The notes beneath the pieces were generated by a model. The model made no database searches. It was not told the origin of the DNA and was given only the letters and a program-made list of their open reading frames with translations. The position numbers and the translations under genes are program-made. A DNA stretch of 64,000 nucleotides, from positions 62,001-126,000 of the forward strand of contig NC_021487.1 of assembly GCF_000427095.1 (NCBI RefSeq), read 5' to 3'. Shown piece after piece: positions 5,792 to 50,178 of this stretch. Each line of letters starts with the position of its first letter. Position 1 is the stretch's first letter. This stretch comes from Chthonomonas calidirosea T49. GTDB lineage: Bacteria; Armatimonadota; Chthonomonadetes; Chthonomonadales; Chthonomonadaceae.

Positions 5792-6826
5792 TTACCGCAC
5801 TGGTTGAAAGCAGTAGAGTTCGCGTTTTCCTTTGCCTTCATCTACGAGCGCAAGCAGGCCTATTTTCCCGTCGTCTCGTGGGTCACCGATACGCACATCG
5901 AGGACTTTGCCCGGCAGCGGATCGCTACGCCAGCTCTCTTCATAATCGTCAAAGCGAGTCAGTTGCCAGAAGGTTTTATCGCGCTCGTCAGCTTTAGGCA
6001 CATAGACGATGAGGCGGTCGCCATCGGGCGTGCCGGTTGGGCTTCCGCTTGTGCCTGCTGTCAAAACTCCAATGAGCCATCTTCTCTGGCCTTGCCAGTA
6101 GGTTTGAGCGTAGAGTATGTTGGTTGTGAGGTTTTGTCGGCCTTCAAACGGGTAGGTACCAGTGCCCCAATGGGGGTAGCCCTCCTCGGTGGGGTTCAGG
6201 TGAAGGTCATCGGTCACGAGTTTGCCTGCGTTCAGCGTCCATACCGAGGTATTATCGCCGTTACCGCAGACCAGGAGGTCGAGCTGACCAGGGCGGATAA
6301 GGCTGAAGCGGAGCGCCGGTGGGGGATCGCAGAGGCGTTCAAAACCTCCACCTTTCCACATAAAGATGCCACCAGAGGTTACGATCTGCACCATCGGCAG
6401 CTTTGGGGTTTTCACGATTTTGTTTTTAGGTGGTTGCGCATCGGTTTCGTCTGGTGCGGCAAGCGTTGGCCAAGAGTCGGCGAAGTGGCCGGCGATGAGA
6501 GGATCCGTAGCCCATCCAATAAAAGAGGCCGTAGCGTCGGTTGCAAAGCGAAAGCCATCCCAATGCGTAAGCAAAAGTCGCCGTCGAAAGTCGGTGGGGC
6601 TTTCCGTTCCGATCAACAGCAAAAGGTCGTCCTGTTGATTTTGCCGGATAGGGCAAAGCTCGAACAGTGCTGTATCATCGGGCAAAGGAGTGTGCCAGGC
6701 GAGAGTGAAGGCGGTGAGAAAGGGGTTGTCCTTACGGGCGAACGGATTGAGCTGCCCTAGGCATTGGCCGATCGCGCAGAGAAGAAAGAGCAGACAGAGG
6801 GGGGATAAGAAGCTTCGGCTTCTCAT
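5792..6826 (-). CDS. Exported protein of unknown function
   Basis: 344 aa. Residues 1-24 form a signal peptide (RSRSF, then a Leu-rich core, cleavage near CLG-Q). No lipobox Cys is placed for clear lipidation. The remainder is rich in Trp, Asp and Pro with repeated short beta-like segments such as LLIGTESPTDFRRRLLLTHW and LDVRIGDPRDDGKIGLLALV, which suggests a beta-propeller-like or FG-GAP-like fold, but no family is recognised. Its start overlaps the stop of the ATPase gene upstream (ATGA), so the two are translated together. This hints at a role near a type II secretion or type IV pilus machine. Confidence 0.6.
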   Translation of the reverse strand: MRSRSFLSPLCLLFLLCAIGQCLGQLNPFARKDNPFLTAFTLAWHTPLPDDTALFELCPIRQNQQDDLLLLIGTESPTDFRRRLLLTHWDGFRFATDATASFIGWATDPLIAGHFADSWPTLAAPDETDAQPPKNKIVKTPKLPMVQIVTSGGIFMWKGGGFERLCDPPPALRFSLIRPGQLDLLVCGNGDNTSVWTLNAGKLVTDDLHLNPTEEGYPHWGTGTYPFEGRQNLTTNILYAQTYWQGQRRWLIGVLTAGTSGSPTGTPDGDRLIVYVPKADERDKTFWQLTRFDDYEESWRSDPLPGKVLDVRIGDPRDDGKIGLLALVDEGKGKRELYCFQPVR

Positions 6827-42554: not shown

Positions 42555-43385
42555 TTAGGGCCATTGGTTGTTTTGGCCTAGGCTCCAGTAGTTCCCGTTG
42601 GTGGCGAGGGTAGAGGTGTGCATTGCCTTAACATGTCCGTCGCAGAAAAAGGTGTTGTTGGTGGATTTGGGATCGGGGAGCGTGGGGCCGCCGCTGAGGC
42701 TGTTGCGTACGAAGGAGGCGCTATGGCGGCCTGCGAGTGTCCACCAGGCGCCGTTTGAGCCGGAAGGGATATTGGAGCCGGAGACATCGAAGTAGCTGAG
42801 TAACAGGGCGGCTCCGGGCTGTTTGCCGTTGCAGAGCCAATCGAAAGTTTCGGCTAGGAGAACGGTGTTGGCTGGTGCGGTAACCGCGGCGATGGAGGCG
42901 GGAGTATGGGTGCCGCTGTGGGAATCGGGGCCGCGCCAGTTGACGATGTCGTCGCTAATGCCATAGGAGGAGATATAGCCGTTGCCGGCGCAGTCGGCCA
43001 GTTGAGAGTTTTTATCTGGCGTGGTATCTGGGCAGGTAAAGATGGCCGGTAGGTCGGTGATCAGCGCCTGCCCCAAATGACCGTGGCCGATGACGTTGCC
43101 CTGAACGTAAGGACATACAAGTTGCGGCCAGAACTGGTTTGGGGACACGAAGGCCGACTGATTGTTAATGTAGATAAGCGTGCTGTAGTAGGGGCAAAAG
43201 ACCTCGTCATAGTCTTGTGCATACATCAGCACGGCTTGGCCCACTTGGCGCACATTCGAGAGACAGGCGGCGGCTCTGGCGGCCTCGCGTGCCCTAGCGA
43301 ACACTGGAAAGAGCAATGCAGCCAGCAGTGCGATGATCGCTATAACCACAAGCAGCTCAATGAGGGTAAATGCACGGTGTTTCAT
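42555..43385 (-). CDS. Type II pseudopilin-like protein (DUF1559)
   Basis: 276 aa. The prepilin cleavage/methylation N terminus is [34 protein letters not shown], with cut before F and conserved E. The following region [23 protein letters not shown] and the C-terminal [11 protein letters not shown] (H-x-x-G type) are the DUF1559 plan, abundant in Planctomycetes and Armatimonadota. Exported by the type II or IV pilus system. It may need the PilB/GspE-like ATPase at 6823-8115. Confidence 0.92.
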
Positions 43386-43405: not shown

Positions 43406-45631
43406 TCAGAAGCCTGCAGCGCTATTCGGTATGCTGTTGTGAAACATATAGGGTGGGGGCGTTGGCGCCGGGGGGCGCGGTCCTCGTACCTCACAGTGAA
43501 AGTGGGTTTGGTGTTCTGAGGGGTTATTTTGCCAGTCTAAAACAAGATCGAAGTGGCGTTTGAGGAGCTTTTCCACTTTAAGGAGTTTTGGTGTTACACT
43601 TGGATTGTCATGATCTTTGACCCACATCGTTGTTCTGTTTGAAAAAACGAAGCCGGCTATGTCTATCGCTTGACCGTAGGCATGCGCGGAGAGATGGGCG
43701 AGATCGTTACGGATCGTCCGGTCGTTATAGACTCCCAGATGATGAATACCGACGAGCCCCAGCGTCTTATGGGCTAGGAGTAGAAAAGCGGCAAGGTGTT
43801 GTTTTAGGCATGGGGCCACGTTAGGGATAGAGGCAGGAATTTGTGGGTTCACGAAGCTGTAGAAGGAGACTCCAAGCCAGTGGGCTGGAATAAAGTCGGT
43901 GGCGCCTCTATCGTATACGTCGCGGTAGGGGCGCACAAAGCGGTCAATGGGTATTCGGGCGGCCTGTTGAAGTTGAGCTGTTGTATATCGGTCACCAAAG
44001 AAGGCACTAAGGCGACCGAGAGCTGTCTGTTGCCAGTGCGCCATTTTGTCGAGGGGGACATACTGCGCTTCACCGGTAGCAGCAAGCTGAGGGTCGGGTT
44101 TTGGGGGATGCGACACAAGGCCTGCAAGCAGCGCGCTTTGGGCGAGGGTGAGTTTGTCTGGGGTGGTATAGAAATACCCCCATGCGGCTTGTGCGATGCC
44201 GTGATACCCCAGGCCGTAGTCAATGGTGTTAAGATAGAGCTCAAGGATCCGCTTTTTGGGCAGTAGGCGGTTCATCAGCAGGGCAATAAGGATCTCCTCT
44301 AGCTTGCGGGATAGGGTTTTACGCGGCGTGAGAAATAGGTTGCGGGCTAGCTGTTGTGTGATGGTACTGCCCCCAAGCTTGATCTCTCCGGCGCGAATAT
44401 CTATCCGCATGGCGCGATCGGTAGCGTTCCAATCCACCCCTGCGTTCTCGTAGAAAGAGCCGTCCTCCGTGGCGATCGTGGCGTCTTGCATGGTCTGGGA
44501 GATATGGTTAAGAGGCACATACACGCTGTAGCCCGCCGGCTTGCCGTTACCCCTGTAGGGCAAGATCAGGTGGTAGGCATGATACAGAAACGCGGCAAGC
44601 CACATTAGGCAAAGATCGCAGGGGAGTGCAGCCGCCACTAGTAGTCTCCGTCGCCGGGCGCGAAGGCCTGTCAAGGTTTCTGCAGAGGGTTCAGGCTTTG
44701 GGAAGTGGGTTAACCCGGGCAGAGCGAGAGAGAGGGCGAGCGGCCATGTGCCGAGTGCTGAGGCGTCGGTGAGAAAAGCGGGGCGAATAGCATTAAACAG
44801 CAGAAGCGTTAAAAGCGTGCCTGAGGCGCTTGCGGCGAGCAGCGTTTCATAGGAGTGTGCCTGTGATGTAGATAAGAGAGCGCGTTGAAATGCTACGAGG
44901 CCAGCTACGATCAGCAAAAGAGCAAGGCTGATGGTAGCGATAGGCCCCTGCTCCATGAGATAGGTTCTAGCGAAGGAAGAGGTTTGAAAAGTGCCGAGGC
45001 CAGTGCCAAAGGGGTCGGTTTGAAGGAGGTGGAGCGGATGCGGCAGCACCGAGAGAGCTACAAGAACGATGAGACCGAAAGTGAGGCAACAAAACAGAGA
45101 CCAGCGGAGCTCGCATGGCGCTCTTTGGGTTAGAAGACATAGGGCGGTGAGGGCGGGAGCAAGCAGTAATAGGAGGCGTAGGGACAGGGGCAGCGCGCAG
45201 ATGAGGATGGCGAACACCCCAAGAGCAACAAGCGGCCACGCTATCTTTCGCACCTTGCCGTGCCATAGGCCGGCGACAGCAAGCGCGGTGGGCAAGGTAG
45301 CCCAAAGTCCCACGCTCGGCCCGCCATGAAGCAGTAGCCCAACGACCATCAACAGATCGAGGAATCCCAACAGGCCGAGCCAAACTTTGTAGAGATCGCG
45401 TGCGATGAGGAGCAGAGCAAGCCCAGCAAATGCGGCCGCCGTGATATACCCCGCAAGACGATACGGGTAGAGATCGGCCGTGGAGAGGAACCAGTCTTTC
45501 ACGATGCTTTCTGTCCATAACAGATAGCAAAACGGTAGAAGAATGAGACCCAATCTGCGCAGCACGGTATGCCCTACCGATGTTTCTTTCGACGATTGGG
45601 TGGTTATGTCCAAGTTGATCGTGGTGGGCAT
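43406..45631 (-). CDS. Polytopic membrane / GT51 peptidoglycan transglycosylase / extensin-like fusion
   Basis: 741 aa. Residues 20-310 form about nine membrane helices; the stretch [23 protein letters not shown] recalls O-antigen ligase or SEDS proteins. One more helix is near 330-352. A GT51 transglycosylase domain follows (380-515): catalytic Glu in [12 protein letters not shown] (E389), [11 protein letters not shown] (421-431), [13 protein letters not shown]. The C terminus (600-720) is like the extensin-like/M15-type peptidase domain, with zinc-type residues H650, D657 ([12 protein letters not shown]) and HTHFHC. Likely makes and edits peptidoglycan. Upstream is the sigma factor gene, 50 bases away. 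Confidence 0.75.
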
Positions 45632-45681: not shown

Positions 45682-46341
45682 TCAAGGTAGCTCCTCCGGA
45701 TTGGAGGGGTAGGGATTCGAGTCGTCCCTCGATTCGCTTTGTTCCTTTGTTGCTTGCCGTTTCCGAAGGAGCCTGCGCGGTTTCTGATGGGATAGTGTTG
45801 GCTTTGCAACATCTTCTTCGATGATAAGGCGCAGCTTTACTCTTGCCCGATGCAGGTGCATTTTCGCTCCGCTTACAGTGATGCGCAAAGATGACGCTAT
45901 CTGCAGCAGCGACTCCTCTCCGTAATAGTACCGTTGCAACACGTCCTGTTGGAGGGGAGTTAACAGCGGGAGGATCTGCTGAAAGAGGCAGCGAAGCTCG
46001 GCGCGAAGGAATTCGGGCTTAAAGTTCATCTGGAGATCGCGTTCGGGTATCTCATCAAGACAAGTACAGGGCTTTAGAGCGCGGAGGTAGTTACAGGCGA
46101 AGTTGTGGGCTGAGCGATGGAGGTACGGCTTATTGCTCATGAGGCCATCAGAGAGCGCTTTGTGAAAGAGGTGCACGGCAAAGTCATGGGCACAGTCTTC
46201 ACGTTCGAGGCAAGGGATTCCGACACGGCAGGCTTGAACGAAGCCGATTTTCACCAACTCCTCGAATGCCGCCAATTCGTCCTTTTCTTCTTTAGACCAT
46301 AGCGTATCGGAGACTGATAATGCAGTGGCATCTGAGTTCAT
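45682..46341 (-). CDS. RNA polymerase sigma-70 family factor (ECF-like)
   Basis: 219 aa. Region 4 is clear: LTPLQQDVLQRYYYGEESLLQIASSLRITVSGAKMHLHRARVKL (about 130-173). Region 2 is weaker (EDCAHDFAVHLFHKAL, YLHRSAHNFACNYLRA). A basic then acidic tail of about 40 residues (RRLLRKRQATKEQSES) extends past region 4. Directs polymerase to a special promoter set; no anti-sigma gene with a zinc finger is adjacent. The ATG is preceded by AAGGAAGGAAGG. Confidence 0.82.
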   Translation of the reverse strand: MNSDATALSVSDTLWSKEEKDELAAFEELVKIGFVQACRVGIPCLEREDCAHDFAVHLFHKALSDGLMSNKPYLHRSAHNFACNYLRALKPCTCLDEIPERDLQMNFKPEFLRAELRCLFQQILPLLTPLQQDVLQRYYYGEESLLQIASSLRITVSGAKMHLHRARVKLRLIIEEDVAKPTLSHQKPRRLLRKRQATKEQSESRDDSNPYPSNPEELP

Positions 46342-46562: not shown

Positions 46563-47642
46563 TCAGCTGTTCGGTTTCCCTTGGTGGGCTCTATTACGTA
46601 AGAGAAGAGTTGCTATAATAAGTGTCACAATTAATAACGGAAGAATGATGAAAATAGAGACGAGAAGTACTTGCCGTTTTGTAATGTGCTTTCCAGGTAC
46701 ATGGGATTGCTTACAGGCGAGGTGAAACGTACTATCTGGGAATTGTGTGTTTATATCGCTTAAATCCAGATGAAAAACCGGAGAGGGAACCATGTAGGCC
46801 TCGAAGTCCACTTTTCCGGAAGGATGGGTTGTTTTTAAGTGGGTTTCCACTCGATATTCAGTAGGAACCCAAATTCCAGCTATTTGCTGACCCCGCGTAA
46901 AAATCACGACGACTTGGGAATCACCGTTCGTAGTTTGAATGCGCACTGGAAAGAAGTAGTGTCCGATCGGGGCAAACCACAGGTCTTGCGGCACATCAAG
47001 AGCCGGTGGTTGCTGCCCCAGAAACCGGACGTGGAAACAGTTCCAACCCCCGATTCTGTCTGTGCCCACCACCGAAAGAGAGGTAGAACGCGTCAGATAG
47101 TAGGCTATCAAAGAAGGGCCGGACTGAATCATCTTGGCATCGAAGTTTGGATAGAGAAGAAGGTCGTTCAGAAAAATCGGCAATCCCTCAGCGCGTATAG
47201 GAGCTAGATAGTTTTCTACGGACTCATCGCTTGTATGATGCGCACAATGAAATTGATGGGAGAAAAATTGATTCTCCGCCGTATCGAAGCCCTTTCCATC
47301 GTAGGCGTACTCTTGTTCGTCCTTGTGATTGGGGGAGTTGTCCGTGAAGAGCACGTGAAACTTATTGCCACTAACCACCGTTTCTATCTGCTCCTGATAG
47401 AGCGGAGATGGTGTGGCATTTTTCAGGGGCATGTTGGGGGTCACGAAGACCCGCATTCGATAAGACGAGAGAGCGTTGTTCACGTTTTGAACATACTGTT
47501 GCCAGCCGTTGAGGAGAAGTTGTGGCGAGGGCAGTTGCGATTGGGCGTAGCCCGTAGAGACGCTCAACAAGATACATAGGCCTGAAAGTAGAAGCGCCTT
47601 GGGCTTCGTCACGGTCATCAACCGTTTGAATGATAGCTTCAT
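46563..47642 (-). CDS. Membrane-anchored exported protein, LolA/RseB-like style
   Basis: 359 aa. Signal peptide (about 1-33), extracytoplasmic domain, then a C-terminal helix (about 323-345) and a short basic tail, so a type I membrane protein. The pattern ALSSYRMRVF, YQEQIETVVSGNKFHVLFTD, YAYDGKGFDTA and GGWNCFHVRFLG is that of the LolA/LppX or RseB-like half-barrel fold binding lipids or lipoproteins. Coupled by a TGA/ATG overlap to the DUF1573-like gene before it. A link with the sigma factor downstream is possible but speculative. Confidence 0.5.
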   Translation of the reverse strand: MKLSFKRLMTVTKPKALLLSGLCILLSVSTGYAQSQLPSPQLLLNGWQQYVQNVNNALSSYRMRVFVTPNMPLKNATPSPLYQEQIETVVSGNKFHVLFTDNSPNHKDEQEYAYDGKGFDTAENQFFSHQFHCAHHTSDESVENYLAPIRAEGLPIFLNDLLLYPNFDAKMIQSGPSLIAYYLTRSTSLSVVGTDRIGGWNCFHVRFLGQQPPALDVPQDLWFAPIGHYFFPVRIQTTNGDSQVVVIFTRGQQIAGIWVPTEYRVETHLKTTHPSGKVDFEAYMVPSPVFHLDLSDINTQFPDSTFHLACKQSHVPGKHITKRQVLLVSIFIILPLLIVTLIIATLLLRNRAHQGKPNS

Positions 47643-48733
47643 TTCTTATTATCTCCTTCTTTAGCGATAGTAGCAACTCGAGTGGAAGATCTCTGAACAA
47701 AGGCTGAGATAGGAATAGCAATAAGCGTTTTACCACCTCCTTTCAGCTGGACATAGGCATCTATCTCGCCTGGACGGTCTGTTAGAAGCCGCACCGAGAA
47801 AGAAGCTTGATGGGCGGAGTGCTTCAGCAGATGCGCCTCAAGGCTTGGGGTTGTACAACGAACCGTGAGGTCGGCTGGCAGCAGCTCGTCGGTGACGATC
47901 TGAAACGTTTGCAGGGGAGAAGGGCTGTTTTGCGCAACCAGCCCAAAGGTGTATTGGGGCGGATGAACTTGCCACTTCGAGCGAATCTGACCGGTGATCG
48001 GGATGTCCGTCGAACCGGTTTGGTGTAGTGCGTCAAACTGCACGTGCACAAATCCTGAAAACGGTCCCTCCGGTGCCTCCCCATCTGCTTTGCATACAAG
48101 CACATGGCCTCTGCCAGGCAAAAGCTTTTGGGAGAGATGAAGCCAAGGGATCTGTGAGGAGATATGAATGCTGTAGATGCTGGAATAGGGGTGAAAAGGG
48201 ACGAGAACGGGATCTGTAGCGCAGCCAGGGGCGCAGCGAACGAGTGTGGGCAACCTCCACACAGGCTGTGCCTCAAGGATGGGAGAATAGACGTGAACCC
48301 CGATCGGTACTTTGGCGACGGCTCCTTGCACAGAAGCGAAAAGGCCTTCGAGGAGATCTCCAGAATCAGGACAGGTGATCTGGTAGGCGATGGTCACCTC
48401 TTTATGCGGGGGCAGGATGGGAATGGAGGTAGCGCCCAAGATTTTAGTGCAGAAGCAGCTTGTGGTGAGAGTGATATTAGACAGCGTCTTCTCGGTGGAG
48501 TTACGAAGGGTTACCCTGCCACGAATCACCCCGGGAAGCACCGCCATGGAGATATGCGACGGAACAAAGTTCAGACCACGCGCGACCGGCTGACCTAAGC
48601 CTAACATCCTTCGTAGCCAGGATAGACCGTGAGAGTAGCCATCGGGAATAACAAACATAAAGGCCACCATAAACCACAGGATGACAATGCAGAACCATTG
48701 CACGGTGTATCTATTCAGAAGCCTTTGTCTCAT
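47639..48733 (-). CDS. DUF1573-like exported protein
   Basis: 364 aa. Residues 8-30 form one hydrophobic helix. The mature part has Ig-like strands of the DUF1573 type: GRVTLRNSTEKTLSNITLTTSCFCTKI, then PPHKEVTIAYQITCPDSGDLLEG. A Cys pair (SCFC) is the usual DUF1573 metal-binding-like site. Two further repeats of the fold follow. It overlaps the next gene by 4 bases (ATGA), and sits behind the O-antigen-ligase-like gene, so an envelope or polysaccharide role is likely. Confidence 0.6.
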   Translation of the reverse strand: MRQRLLNRYTVQWFCIVILWFMVAFMFVIPDGYSHGLSWLRRMLGLGQPVARGLNFVPSHISMAVLPGVIRGRVTLRNSTEKTLSNITLTTSCFCTKILGATSIPILPPHKEVTIAYQITCPDSGDLLEGLFASVQGAVAKVPIGVHVYSPILEAQPVWRLPTLVRCAPGCATDPVLVPFHPYSSIYSIHISSQIPWLHLSQKLLPGRGHVLVCKADGEAPEGPFSGFVHVQFDALHQTGSTDIPITGQIRSKWQVHPPQYTFGLVAQNSPSPLQTFQIVTDELLPADLTVRCTTPSLEAHLLKHSAHQASFSVRLLTDRPGEIDAYVQLKGGGKTLIAIPISAFVQRSSTRVATIAKEGDNKK

Positions 48734-48837: not shown

Positions 48838-50178
48838 TCACACTGCTGGAGGCGATTTTGACACGATGACATCGAAGCGCCTGCCTAGCGCCAAACCTGT
48901 TAGAAGGAGCAGAGAGATTAGGCCGGCGTATAGCTCGACGTCGAGAAACACACTGGGGTCGAAGAGGCCCGTAACTATCAAGGCCGTCCATGCGCCTAGT
49001 GTTGCGACAACGAGACCGTTTTGAGTTGGTGGCAGATCGGGCGATTGGAGCTGTCGGCATAGCCAGTAGAAAAGGGCGAGAACGAGCAGTAGAAAAAGCG
49101 TCAATCCAACCGCGCCATAGCCGTGGAGGAAACCGATGCAAAGATTATAATCTACTATAATATTATAATTGTAGGAGAACTGTTGCGTGCCCTCTTCAAG
49201 CCACCGGTCGTAAGCCCTAGAGATGAGGGTATGAATGCCCGCCCCGTTAGAGAGGTCTGAGGGATGAACGAGCGCGTTAGCGCCAAGCCAGGGATAGTTG
49301 GAGAGCGAGGATTCGAGCCCGCTGAACCAGTCTGAGATTCGCGTTCTTGTAGAGTTATCGTGCTGAAGCAGCTGCGTGGAGATATGTTTATCGCTGCGCA
49401 GCCAAAAACAGCCTATGATCAGCACGGCTGCGGAGAGGATCAACACGTAGCGTCGTGGGCGACTTTGAAAAAGGGCGATGCAACCTAGGCCAGCGGCCAA
49501 TCCAACATAACAACCGCGGGTGTAGGTTAAGAGAAGGAGCACCAGCACAAAAAAGGGTGCGTTCAATCGCCAAGGCGTCCGCCACGACAGGGGATGTTGC
49601 AACAGCTCCGCTAACAGGATAAAGAAGAACACAAGCATGTGCGGGGTCAGATCAAAGGGGTTGCCATAAAGGCCGGAGGCGCGATAGCCCACATAGGGGG
49701 AGTGGAACTGATGAAAGTGCAAGGCATAGGCGAGATAGGCGATCACCACATGCAGTGCTAGCAGCACCTTAAGGGTTGTCAGTGTCAGCTGACGTTCGCG
49801 GCCCTGCAAACACTGGGAGAGAAAGAAGAGCGACCAGCCCGCGAGAAAAGACGAGAAGGTTGAACAAAGTAGGAGCACATAGATGCAGAAACAGATAGCC
49901 GAGGCATTTACTAGCCCCAGTTTCGCCGATCGGGCACGCGAGTACCACGCAAGGAGGGCAACACTTCCGAGGAGACAAAGCCCCCAAGCCGCGTGGGGTA
50001 TCAGGGTAAAGGGGTAACCATCCAGTTCAAATGTTGGATATCTCACAAAGTGAAGGGGCAGCAACGCCGCAGGTAGGAAGAACCCGACGATCAACACAAA
50101 GACCAAGCCGCCCAGCTGTCCTGTGGAGTCTGCCGAATCCGGTTGTTTTGTGCGCAGCGCAAAAGGAGTTTGAATCAC
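48838..50178 (-). CDS. O-antigen ligase / polymerase-like membrane protein (Wzy/WaaL superfamily)
   Basis: 446 aa, about twelve membrane helices. PFFVLVLLLLTYTRGCYVGLAAGLG carries the TRG motif, followed by a large periplasmic loop with NPWLGANALVHPSD-like sequence (SNYPWLGANAL) and FLHGYGAVGLTLFLLL, typical of the Wzy_C superfamily. It joins or polymerises polysaccharide units outside the inner membrane. Upstream 50179-50487 has no gene; possible -10 near 50308. Confidence 0.75.
   Translation of the reverse strand: MIQTPFALRTKQPDSADSTGQLGGLVFVLIVGFFLPAALLPLHFVRYPTFELDGYPFTLIPHAAWGLCLLGSVALLAWYSRARSAKLGLVNASAICFCIYVLLLCSTFSSFLAGWSLFFLSQCLQGRERQLTLTTLKVLLALHVVIAYLAYALHFHQFHSPYVGYRASGLYGNPFDLTPHMLVFFFILLAELLQHPLSWRTPWRLNAPFFVLVLLLLTYTRGCYVGLAAGLGCIALFQSRPRRYVLILSAAVLIIGCFWLRSDKHISTQLLQHDNSTRTRISDWFSGLESSLSNYPWLGANALVHPSDLSNGAGIHTLISRAYDRWLEEGTQQFSYNYNIIVDYNLCIGFLHGYGAVGLTLFLLLVLALFYWLCRQLQSPDLPPTQNGLVVATLGAWTALIVTGLFDPSVFLDVELYAGLISLLLLTGLALGRRFDVIVSKSPPAV

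What the first reader, a model, noticed from the sequence alone, without database searches (positions are those of the whole stretch)
43406..45631. Three-part fusion: ligase-like membrane domain, GT51 transglycosylase and extensin-like peptidase domain
Seen: motifs for all three in one open frame. Transglycosylases are usually fused to transpeptidases (class A PBPs). Here the C-terminal part is a zinc-peptidase-like extensin domain and the N-terminal part has about nine helices with a pattern like Wzy or SEDS proteins. This would pair strand synthesis with peptide cutting, a composition I do not recognise from described enzymes.
Basis: partly seen in the sequence, partly recalled or inferred. 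Interest (0 to 1): 0.65.

Follow-up and report, generated by a model that had tools for sequence, protein, structure and literature searches.

The report
Wall-strand polymerase fused to peptide cutter
A gene shared by a small group of Armatimonadota bacteria joins an enzyme that makes cell-wall sugar strands to a zinc enzyme of a type that cuts wall peptides, behind a worn-out sugar-ligase membrane domain, and it sits in a conserved, undescribed gene cluster next to a pilin gene.

Summary
One intact 741-codon frame (43406-45631, minus) encodes a roughly 350-residue polytopic membrane domain, a GT51 transglycosylase (Pfam E 2.5e-49) and an Extensin-like_C domain (E 4.7e-11). Both GT51 catalytic glutamates and the HxxxxxxD...HxH zinc motif are invariant in eight proteins from seven genomes, so it is neither a chance frame nor an assembly join. 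The GT51 models on Aquifex PBP1a (Z 20.9). The C-terminus models on hedgehog/MepA-type metallopeptidases (Z about 8). The N-terminus is a degenerate Wzy_C (O-antigen ligase) domain, not SEDS. It aligns along its length with the Wzy part of Wzy-GT51 proteins from other Armatimonadota, but lacks the four arginines found in all 20 intact Wzy proteins compared. These GT51s form a clade apart from class A PBPs. Their genes lie in a recurring cluster: LolA-like, DUF1573-like, Wzy_C ligase (separate or fused), GT51 (with or without Extensin), and a DUF1559 prepilin downstream. Most likely the protein is a specialised wall synthase whose transpeptidase is replaced by a stem-peptide hydrolase, held beside a Wzy_C ligase and a pilin. 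The architecture is shown; activity and substrate are inferred. No description was found in the held literature.

The parts
43406..45631 (-). Three-part protein P0001 (741 aa): degenerate Wzy domain, GT51, Extensin-like_C (LAS/M15-type) domain
   Evidence: Pfam hits; eight homologous GT51-Extensin proteins in seven genomes, this one included
44564..45631 (-). N-terminal polytopic membrane domain (residues 1-356), degenerate Wzy_C/O-antigen-ligase relative without the four conserved arginines
   Evidence: hhalign against the Wzy part of Wzy-GT51 proteins, 274 columns, score 66 against 17-29 for reversed controls; conserved-column analysis
45461..45499 (-). [13 protein letters not shown] (residues 45-57): motif D-x-x-x-S-x4-Y shared with Wzy-GT51 fusions
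   Evidence: merged alignment; K45, D46, S50, P56 invariant within the fusion family
44084..44527 (-). GT51 transglycosylase domain (residues 369-516); catalytic glutamates E389 (44465-44467) and E446 (44294-44296)
   Evidence: Pfam E 2.5e-49; alignment to Aquifex PBP1a 2oqo/3nb6; fold Z 20.9 to 3d3h; invariant columns
43760..44083 (-). Conserved linker between GT51 and Extensin domain (residues 517-624) with DRGAT...IPAxWxGVSFY; the structure match to hedgehog/MepA begins within it (residue 568)
   Evidence: alignments A1/A2/A6; fold ranges
43487..43759 (-). Extensin-like_C domain (residues 625-715); putative zinc motif H650-x6-D657 (43661-43684) and H710-F-H712 (43496-43504)
   Evidence: Pfam E 4.7e-11; invariant H650, D657, H710, H712; fold match to hedgehog/MepA
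42555..43385 (-). DUF1559-type prepilin (pseudopilin), next gene downstream
   Evidence: Pfam N_methyl and SBP_bac_10; NCBIfam TIGR02532; prepilin motif within 11-217 bp downstream in 13 of 18 related loci
45682..46341 (-). Sigma-70/ECF-type sigma factor, next gene upstream, 50-bp gap
   Evidence: Pfam Sigma70_r4_2 E 2.3e-8; homologues in the G029 and G021 clusters
46563..47642 (-). Secreted-looking protein of the cluster, called LolA-like here by eye (no Pfam hit)
   Evidence: homologues at the equivalent place in L042, L043, L047, L055, L095
47639..48733 (-). DUF1573-like protein of the cluster
   Evidence: homologues in clusters; the L043 homologue has a weak DUF1573 hit, E 0.005, below cut-off
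48838..50178 (-). Intact Wzy_C (O-antigen-ligase family) protein with the four conserved arginines
   Evidence: Pfam Wzy_C 31.5 bits against a cut-off of 31.7, E 1.8e-7; over cut-off in the genome search, 34.9 bits; conserved columns

Best explanation
The protein is a specialised extracytoplasmic peptidoglycan synthase. (1) SHOWN by sequence and fold: a polytopic domain derived from a Wzy_C ligase but stripped of its conserved arginines anchors the protein; an intact GT51 domain follows; a LAS/M15-type metallopeptidase fold (Extensin-like_C) ends it. (2) INFERRED from established GT51 biology: the GT51 domain polymerises lipid II into glycan strands outside the membrane. Because GT51 is extracytoplasmic and no membrane segment follows it, the Extensin domain lies on the same side. 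(3) INFERRED: that domain binds zinc through H650, D657 and H710/H712 and cuts stem peptides of the nascent or neighbouring wall, most likely as a DD-carboxypeptidase or endopeptidase. It would therefore produce strands that cannot donate cross-links, or open local space, where a class A PBP would cross-link. (4) INFERRED from gene order and domain fusion: it works next to the Wzy_C ligase and the prepilin of its cluster, to fit a pilin-based or glycosylated surface structure into the wall under control of the adjacent sigma factor.
For: Domain hits over curated cut-offs. Catalytic E389 and E446 align with the Aquifex PBP1a GT domain and are invariant. Fold Z 20.9 to Aquifex PBP1a (3d3h) for GT51; hedgehog/MepA Z about 8.2 for the C-terminus. 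The C-terminal domain alone (pLDDT 83) matches hedgehog, MepA, Ply500, Zn DD-peptidase 1lbu, LdcB and VanXY, all one superfamily. H650-x6-D657 and HxH invariant. Wzy origin of the N-terminus. System GT51s form one side of a 100/99 branch, apart from 32 class A PBPs. Cluster conservation, against 46 DUF1559 matches in the 3.44-Mb genome. A separate class-A-PBP-like GT51 protein in the same genome can cover housekeeping synthesis. In G209 a free Extensin-like_C domain is joined to a peptidoglycan-binding domain PF01471.
Against: No activity, metal or substrate was tested. Extensin-like_C proteins appear biochemically undescribed in the held literature, and the fold also includes hedgehog, which is not known as a peptidase. 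Pfam covers only positions 76-166 of 176. Foldseek alone gives only E 7.6e-3. N-terminal model confidence is poor (pLDDT about 40). The link to pilin and ligase rests on gene neighbourhood only.
Confidence: 0.5

Rival explanations
1. Wall-anchoring or glycan-ligation system: the GT51 makes short lipid-linked glycan strands, the Extensin domain strips or trims their peptides, and the neighbouring Wzy_C ligase (fused to the GT51 in other Armatimonadota) transfers the strand, or another lipid-linked glycan, to the adjacent prepilin or to an envelope polymer.
For: Each fully covered cluster has an intact Wzy_C protein and a GT51, either separate or fused as Wzy_C-GT51. A prepilin gene lies directly downstream in 13 of 18 loci. 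WaaL-family O-oligosaccharyltransferase genes were adjacent to pilin genes in 21 of 31 cases (PMC3643930). The Wzy part of L051 matches the O-glycosylation ligase model TIGR03097, E 3e-14, below its cut-off.
Against: No precedent known to me for a GT51 product as donor of a Wzy_C ligase. Many Wzy proteins here have lysine in place of the WaaL/PglL histidine. The chemistry of the carried glycan is unknown.
Confidence: 0.2
2. The Extensin domain is not a peptidase but a peptidoglycan- or glycan-binding module that places the GT51, much as hedgehog keeps the zinc fold without a known peptidase role.
For: The best fold match is the hedgehog signalling domain; no bacterial Extensin-like_C activity was found in the held literature.
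Against: The full HxxxxxxD and HxH motif is invariant across distant members, including two-part versions. MepA, Zn DD-peptidase, Ply500 and LdcB, all enzymes, also match.
Confidence: 0.2
3. An ordinary auxiliary transglycosylase: the N-terminal and Extensin parts are evolutionary baggage with no coupled role.
For: Relatives with a short N-terminus (G029, G021, G024) or without Extensin (G022, G026, G013) exist.
Against: GT51-Extensin linker and zinc motif are conserved from Chthonomonadales to the distant G078, with two copies in G078.
Confidence: 0.1

Closest known systems
Class A penicillin-binding proteins (e.g. Aquifex PBP1a GT domain, E. coli PBP1b)
   Same: GT51 fold and both catalytic glutamates; fused to a second, peptide-acting domain on the outer face of the membrane
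   Different: No transpeptidase domain; the second domain is an Extensin/LAS-type metallopeptidase fold; polytopic rather than single-pass anchor (class A PBPs have a single membrane segment, PMC4632607); separate clade
Monofunctional GT51 transglycosylases (MtgA/Mgt)
   Same: GT51 without transpeptidase
   Different: Below the TIGR02070 cut-off (136 against 182.65 bits); two extra domains
Extensin-like_C / LAS (M15, MepA, hedgehog) metallopeptidases
   Same: Pfam Extensin-like_C hit, H-x6-D and HxH motif, predicted fold
   Different: Here fused C-terminally to a GT51; the known M15 enzymes are separate hydrolases
Wzy_C ligases: WaaL, PglL/PilO O-oligosaccharyltransferases
   Same: N-terminus shares ancestry; an intact Wzy_C protein and a pilin gene lie in the same cluster, as for many PglL genes (PMC3643930)
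   Different: N-terminus of this protein lacks the conserved arginines and most of the large loop; no Wzy_C system known to me includes a GT51

Membership tests
Class A penicillin-binding protein | GT51 domain with catalytic glutamates | tested here: met
Class A penicillin-binding protein | C-terminal transpeptidase domain | tested here: not met
   No transpeptidase match in Pfam; NCBIfam PBP models match only over the GT51 region and far below cut-off
Monofunctional transglycosylase MtgA (TIGR02070) | Score over curated cut-off | tested here: not met
   136 bits against 182.65
GT51 family (PF00912) | Profile score over cut-off, catalytic residues, fold | tested here: met
   167.6 bits against 27; E389/E446; Z 20.9
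GT51 family (PF00912) | Lipid II polymerisation | not testable with these tools
   needs biochemistry
Extensin-like_C (PF06904) | Profile score over cut-off | tested here: met
   43.6 bits against 25.4, profile positions 76-166 of 176
LAS/M15-type metallopeptidase | HxxxxxxD and HxH zinc motifs | tested here: met
   H650, D657, H710, H712 invariant in eight proteins
LAS/M15-type metallopeptidase | Fold | tested here: met
   hedgehog Z 8.5, MepA 8.1, 1lbu 6.3, LdcB 5.2; modest values but one coherent superfamily; Foldseek alone E 7.6e-3
LAS/M15-type metallopeptidase | Peptidase activity | not testable with these tools
   needs biochemistry
Wzy_C / O-antigen ligase (N-terminus) | Homology | tested here: met
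   hhalign 274 columns, score 66 against 17-29 for reversed controls; no Pfam Wzy_C hit by single sequence
Wzy_C / O-antigen ligase (N-terminus) | Conserved arginines of the intact ligases | tested here: not met
   four arginines present in 20 of 20 intact proteins compared, absent here
SEDS (RodA/FtsW) | Pfam profile match | tested here: not met
   no match up to E 10 for any of six N-termini

The most novel reading that the evidence does not exclude
An undescribed Armatimonadota envelope system in which a GT51 transglycosylase and a Wzy_C ligase act as a pair (one fused protein or two genes): GT51 strands, trimmed by the Extensin metallopeptidase, are made for and attached to, or threaded around, a pseudopilin surface structure.
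Probability: 0.2. Interest if true: 0.85.

Novelty: new variant of a known kind. Interest (0 to 1): 0.62.

Why it matters
Textbook bifunctional wall synthases pair strand making with cross-linking. Here strand making is paired with a peptide-cutting fold in one chain, and related genomes fuse the same GT51 to an intact Wzy_C ligase. If the enzyme works as its parts suggest, it separates strand polymerisation from cross-linking and points to a dedicated way of building wall around, or glycan onto, a pilin-like structure in a phylum whose envelope is hardly studied. It also offers a handle on Extensin-like_C, a bacterial domain for which no tested function was found.

Tried and rejected
Chance or assembly fusion: rejected, as the GT51-Extensin join recurs in seven genomes with a conserved linker. 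SEDS N-terminus: no profile match. Defence system: no PADLOC hit in six cluster proteins. Spread beyond the phylum: one genome-contig scan found only Chthonomonadales-type loci, but it used a single peptide pattern and does not exclude others; plasmids gave none and phages only matches in or near the GT51 part. Profile search of the C-terminus against PDB sequences found nothing. The full-length AF2 model is unreliable for residues 1-368, so no fold claim is made for the N-terminus. Whether all GT51-Extensin proteins share one fusion event is unresolved: their GT51s are one group in only 34% of bootstrap trees.

Full report
WHERE. The window is bases 62001-126000 of a single 3,437,861-base contig. 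Related records are titled Chthonomonadales/Chthonomonadaceae.

OBSERVATION. The minus-strand frame 43406-45631 encodes 741 residues. Pfam finds Transgly at 369-516 (E 2.5e-49) and Extensin-like_C at 625-715 (E 4.7e-11), both over curated cut-offs, and nothing over cut-off in residues 1-356. NCBIfam class-A-PBP models match only across the GT51 part and far below cut-off, so there is no transpeptidase. The genome has one other GT51 protein, an 835-aa open frame at 1.705 Mb that groups with class A PBPs, one Extensin-like_C domain, and three Wzy_C matches.

CONSERVATION. Searching relatives found the same arrangement in G011 and G001, with a copy cut off at a contig end in G014. G078 has two copies, one carrying a further Peptidase_C39 domain, E 3.6e-13. 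G029, G021 and G024 have a version with a short membrane N-terminus. Extensin-like_C occurs in only 8 of 291 genomes of the phylum, and in seven of those (this genome included) it is joined to GT51. The eighth, G209, has it with a peptidoglycan-binding domain. Across eight GT51-Extensin proteins the GT51 glutamates E389 and E446, and H650, D657, H710 and H712, are invariant (six of them again).

GT51 PART. Aligned to Aquifex PBP1a, the EDxxF and RKxxE motifs match directly. The model matches Aquifex 3d3h at Z 20.9 over 171 residues. In a tree of 54 GT51 domains, the 20 domains of this kind of locus (8 with Extensin, 8 fused to Wzy_C, 4 short or truncated) form one side of a 100/99 branch, opposite 32 class A PBPs. 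Two distant short GT51s (G205, G240) fall with the PBPs.

C-TERMINAL PART. Predicted alone it has pLDDT 83. Its structural neighbours are hedgehog (Z 8.5), MepA (8.1), Ply500, Zn DD-peptidase 1lbu, LdcB and VanXY, which belong to one metallopeptidase superfamily. Foldseek by itself gives only a weak top hit, sonic hedgehog, E 7.6e-3. H-x6-D plus HxH is the LAS-type zinc motif (established knowledge). The fold match begins at residue 568, so the structural domain is larger than the Pfam match.

N-TERMINAL PART. No single sequence hits a Wzy_C or SEDS model in Pfam. With the GT51 region cut off, a profile of six N-termini aligns over 274 columns to the Wzy part of Wzy_C-GT51 proteins: score 66, probability 95%, E 2.5e-8. 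Reversed templates give 17-29. A shared motif, [13 protein letters not shown] here, corresponds to the D-x-x-x-S-x4-Y segment of Wzy-GT51 proteins. Four arginines present in all 20 intact Wzy proteins compared are missing, as is most of the large periplasmic loop. It is therefore best called a degenerate Wzy domain. Its fold could not be predicted reliably.

CLUSTER. In the window the order on the minus strand is Wzy_C ligase (48838-50178), DUF1573-like (47639-48733), LolA-like (46563-47642), sigma factor (45682-46341), this protein, DUF1559 prepilin (42555-43385). Similar sets occur in G011, G001, G029, G021, G024, G022, G013, G033, G201, G200, G193, G057 and G078, with gene-by-gene variation. 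In f1 and f3 lineages and in G078 the intact Wzy_C protein is a separate gene. In G057, G193, G033, G047, G200 and G201 it is fused to the GT51, and no second Wzy_C protein was seen nearby. A prepilin motif follows the GT51 gene within 11-217 bases in 13 of 18 loci. The genome has 46 DUF1559 matches in 3.44 Mb, so chance adjacency at this rate is very unlikely, although the loci are not phylogenetically independent.

INTERPRETATION. Shown: composition, conservation, intact catalytic motifs, degenerate N-terminus, cluster. Inferred: lipid II polymerisation, zinc peptidase activity, partnership with the ligase and the pilin. PglL-type genes lie next to pilin genes in 21 of 31 cases surveyed (PMC3643930), which makes a pilin-glycan link plausible but does not show it. 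Class A PBPs are described as GTase plus TPase enzymes with a single membrane segment (PMC4632607); this protein fails both points and should not be filed as one.

LIMITS. The search outside Armatimonadota was a single scan with one peptide pattern. Literature searches covered only the held open library and found no description of the fusion or of bacterial Extensin-like_C function. Novelty is therefore stated relative to that library.

Noticed in passing
L051:1061-3169 (G057), L091, L092, L093, L094, L095, L054, L055: Two-domain Wzy_C-GT51 fusions with intact Wzy arginines and neither Extensin nor transpeptidase, in several Armatimonadota families; no description found.
   Followed up: partly
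L048:7582-10029 (G078): GT51-Extensin protein with an additional C-terminal Peptidase_C39 domain (E 3.6e-13); weakly like the pilus-system C39 peptidase FilB.
   Followed up: no
L048:3131-7120 (G078): 1329-aa protein with long membrane part, a partial GT51 match covering only profile positions 89-157, and DUF3466-type repeats, next to the GT51-Extensin gene.
   Followed up: no
L043:2650-3162, L055:2490-2903, L093:6013-6480, L094:4482-4844 and 6114-6485, L095:4377-4865, L096:606-992, L052:4569-5033, L048:12182-12604: Small secreted-looking proteins with about 8-13 cysteines lie in or near most related clusters; none was found in the window's own cluster. The two tested match no NCBIfam model.
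   Followed up: partly
L044:3508-4236, L045:14403-15131, L052:3828-4532, L097:1364-2116: DsbA/thioredoxin-like protein in the clusters that carry a cysteine-rich protein in family f3 and in G013.
   Followed up: no
L050:6385-7224 (G209): Free-standing Extensin-like_C protein joined to a peptidoglycan-binding domain PF01471, which hints that the domain acts on the wall.
   Followed up: no
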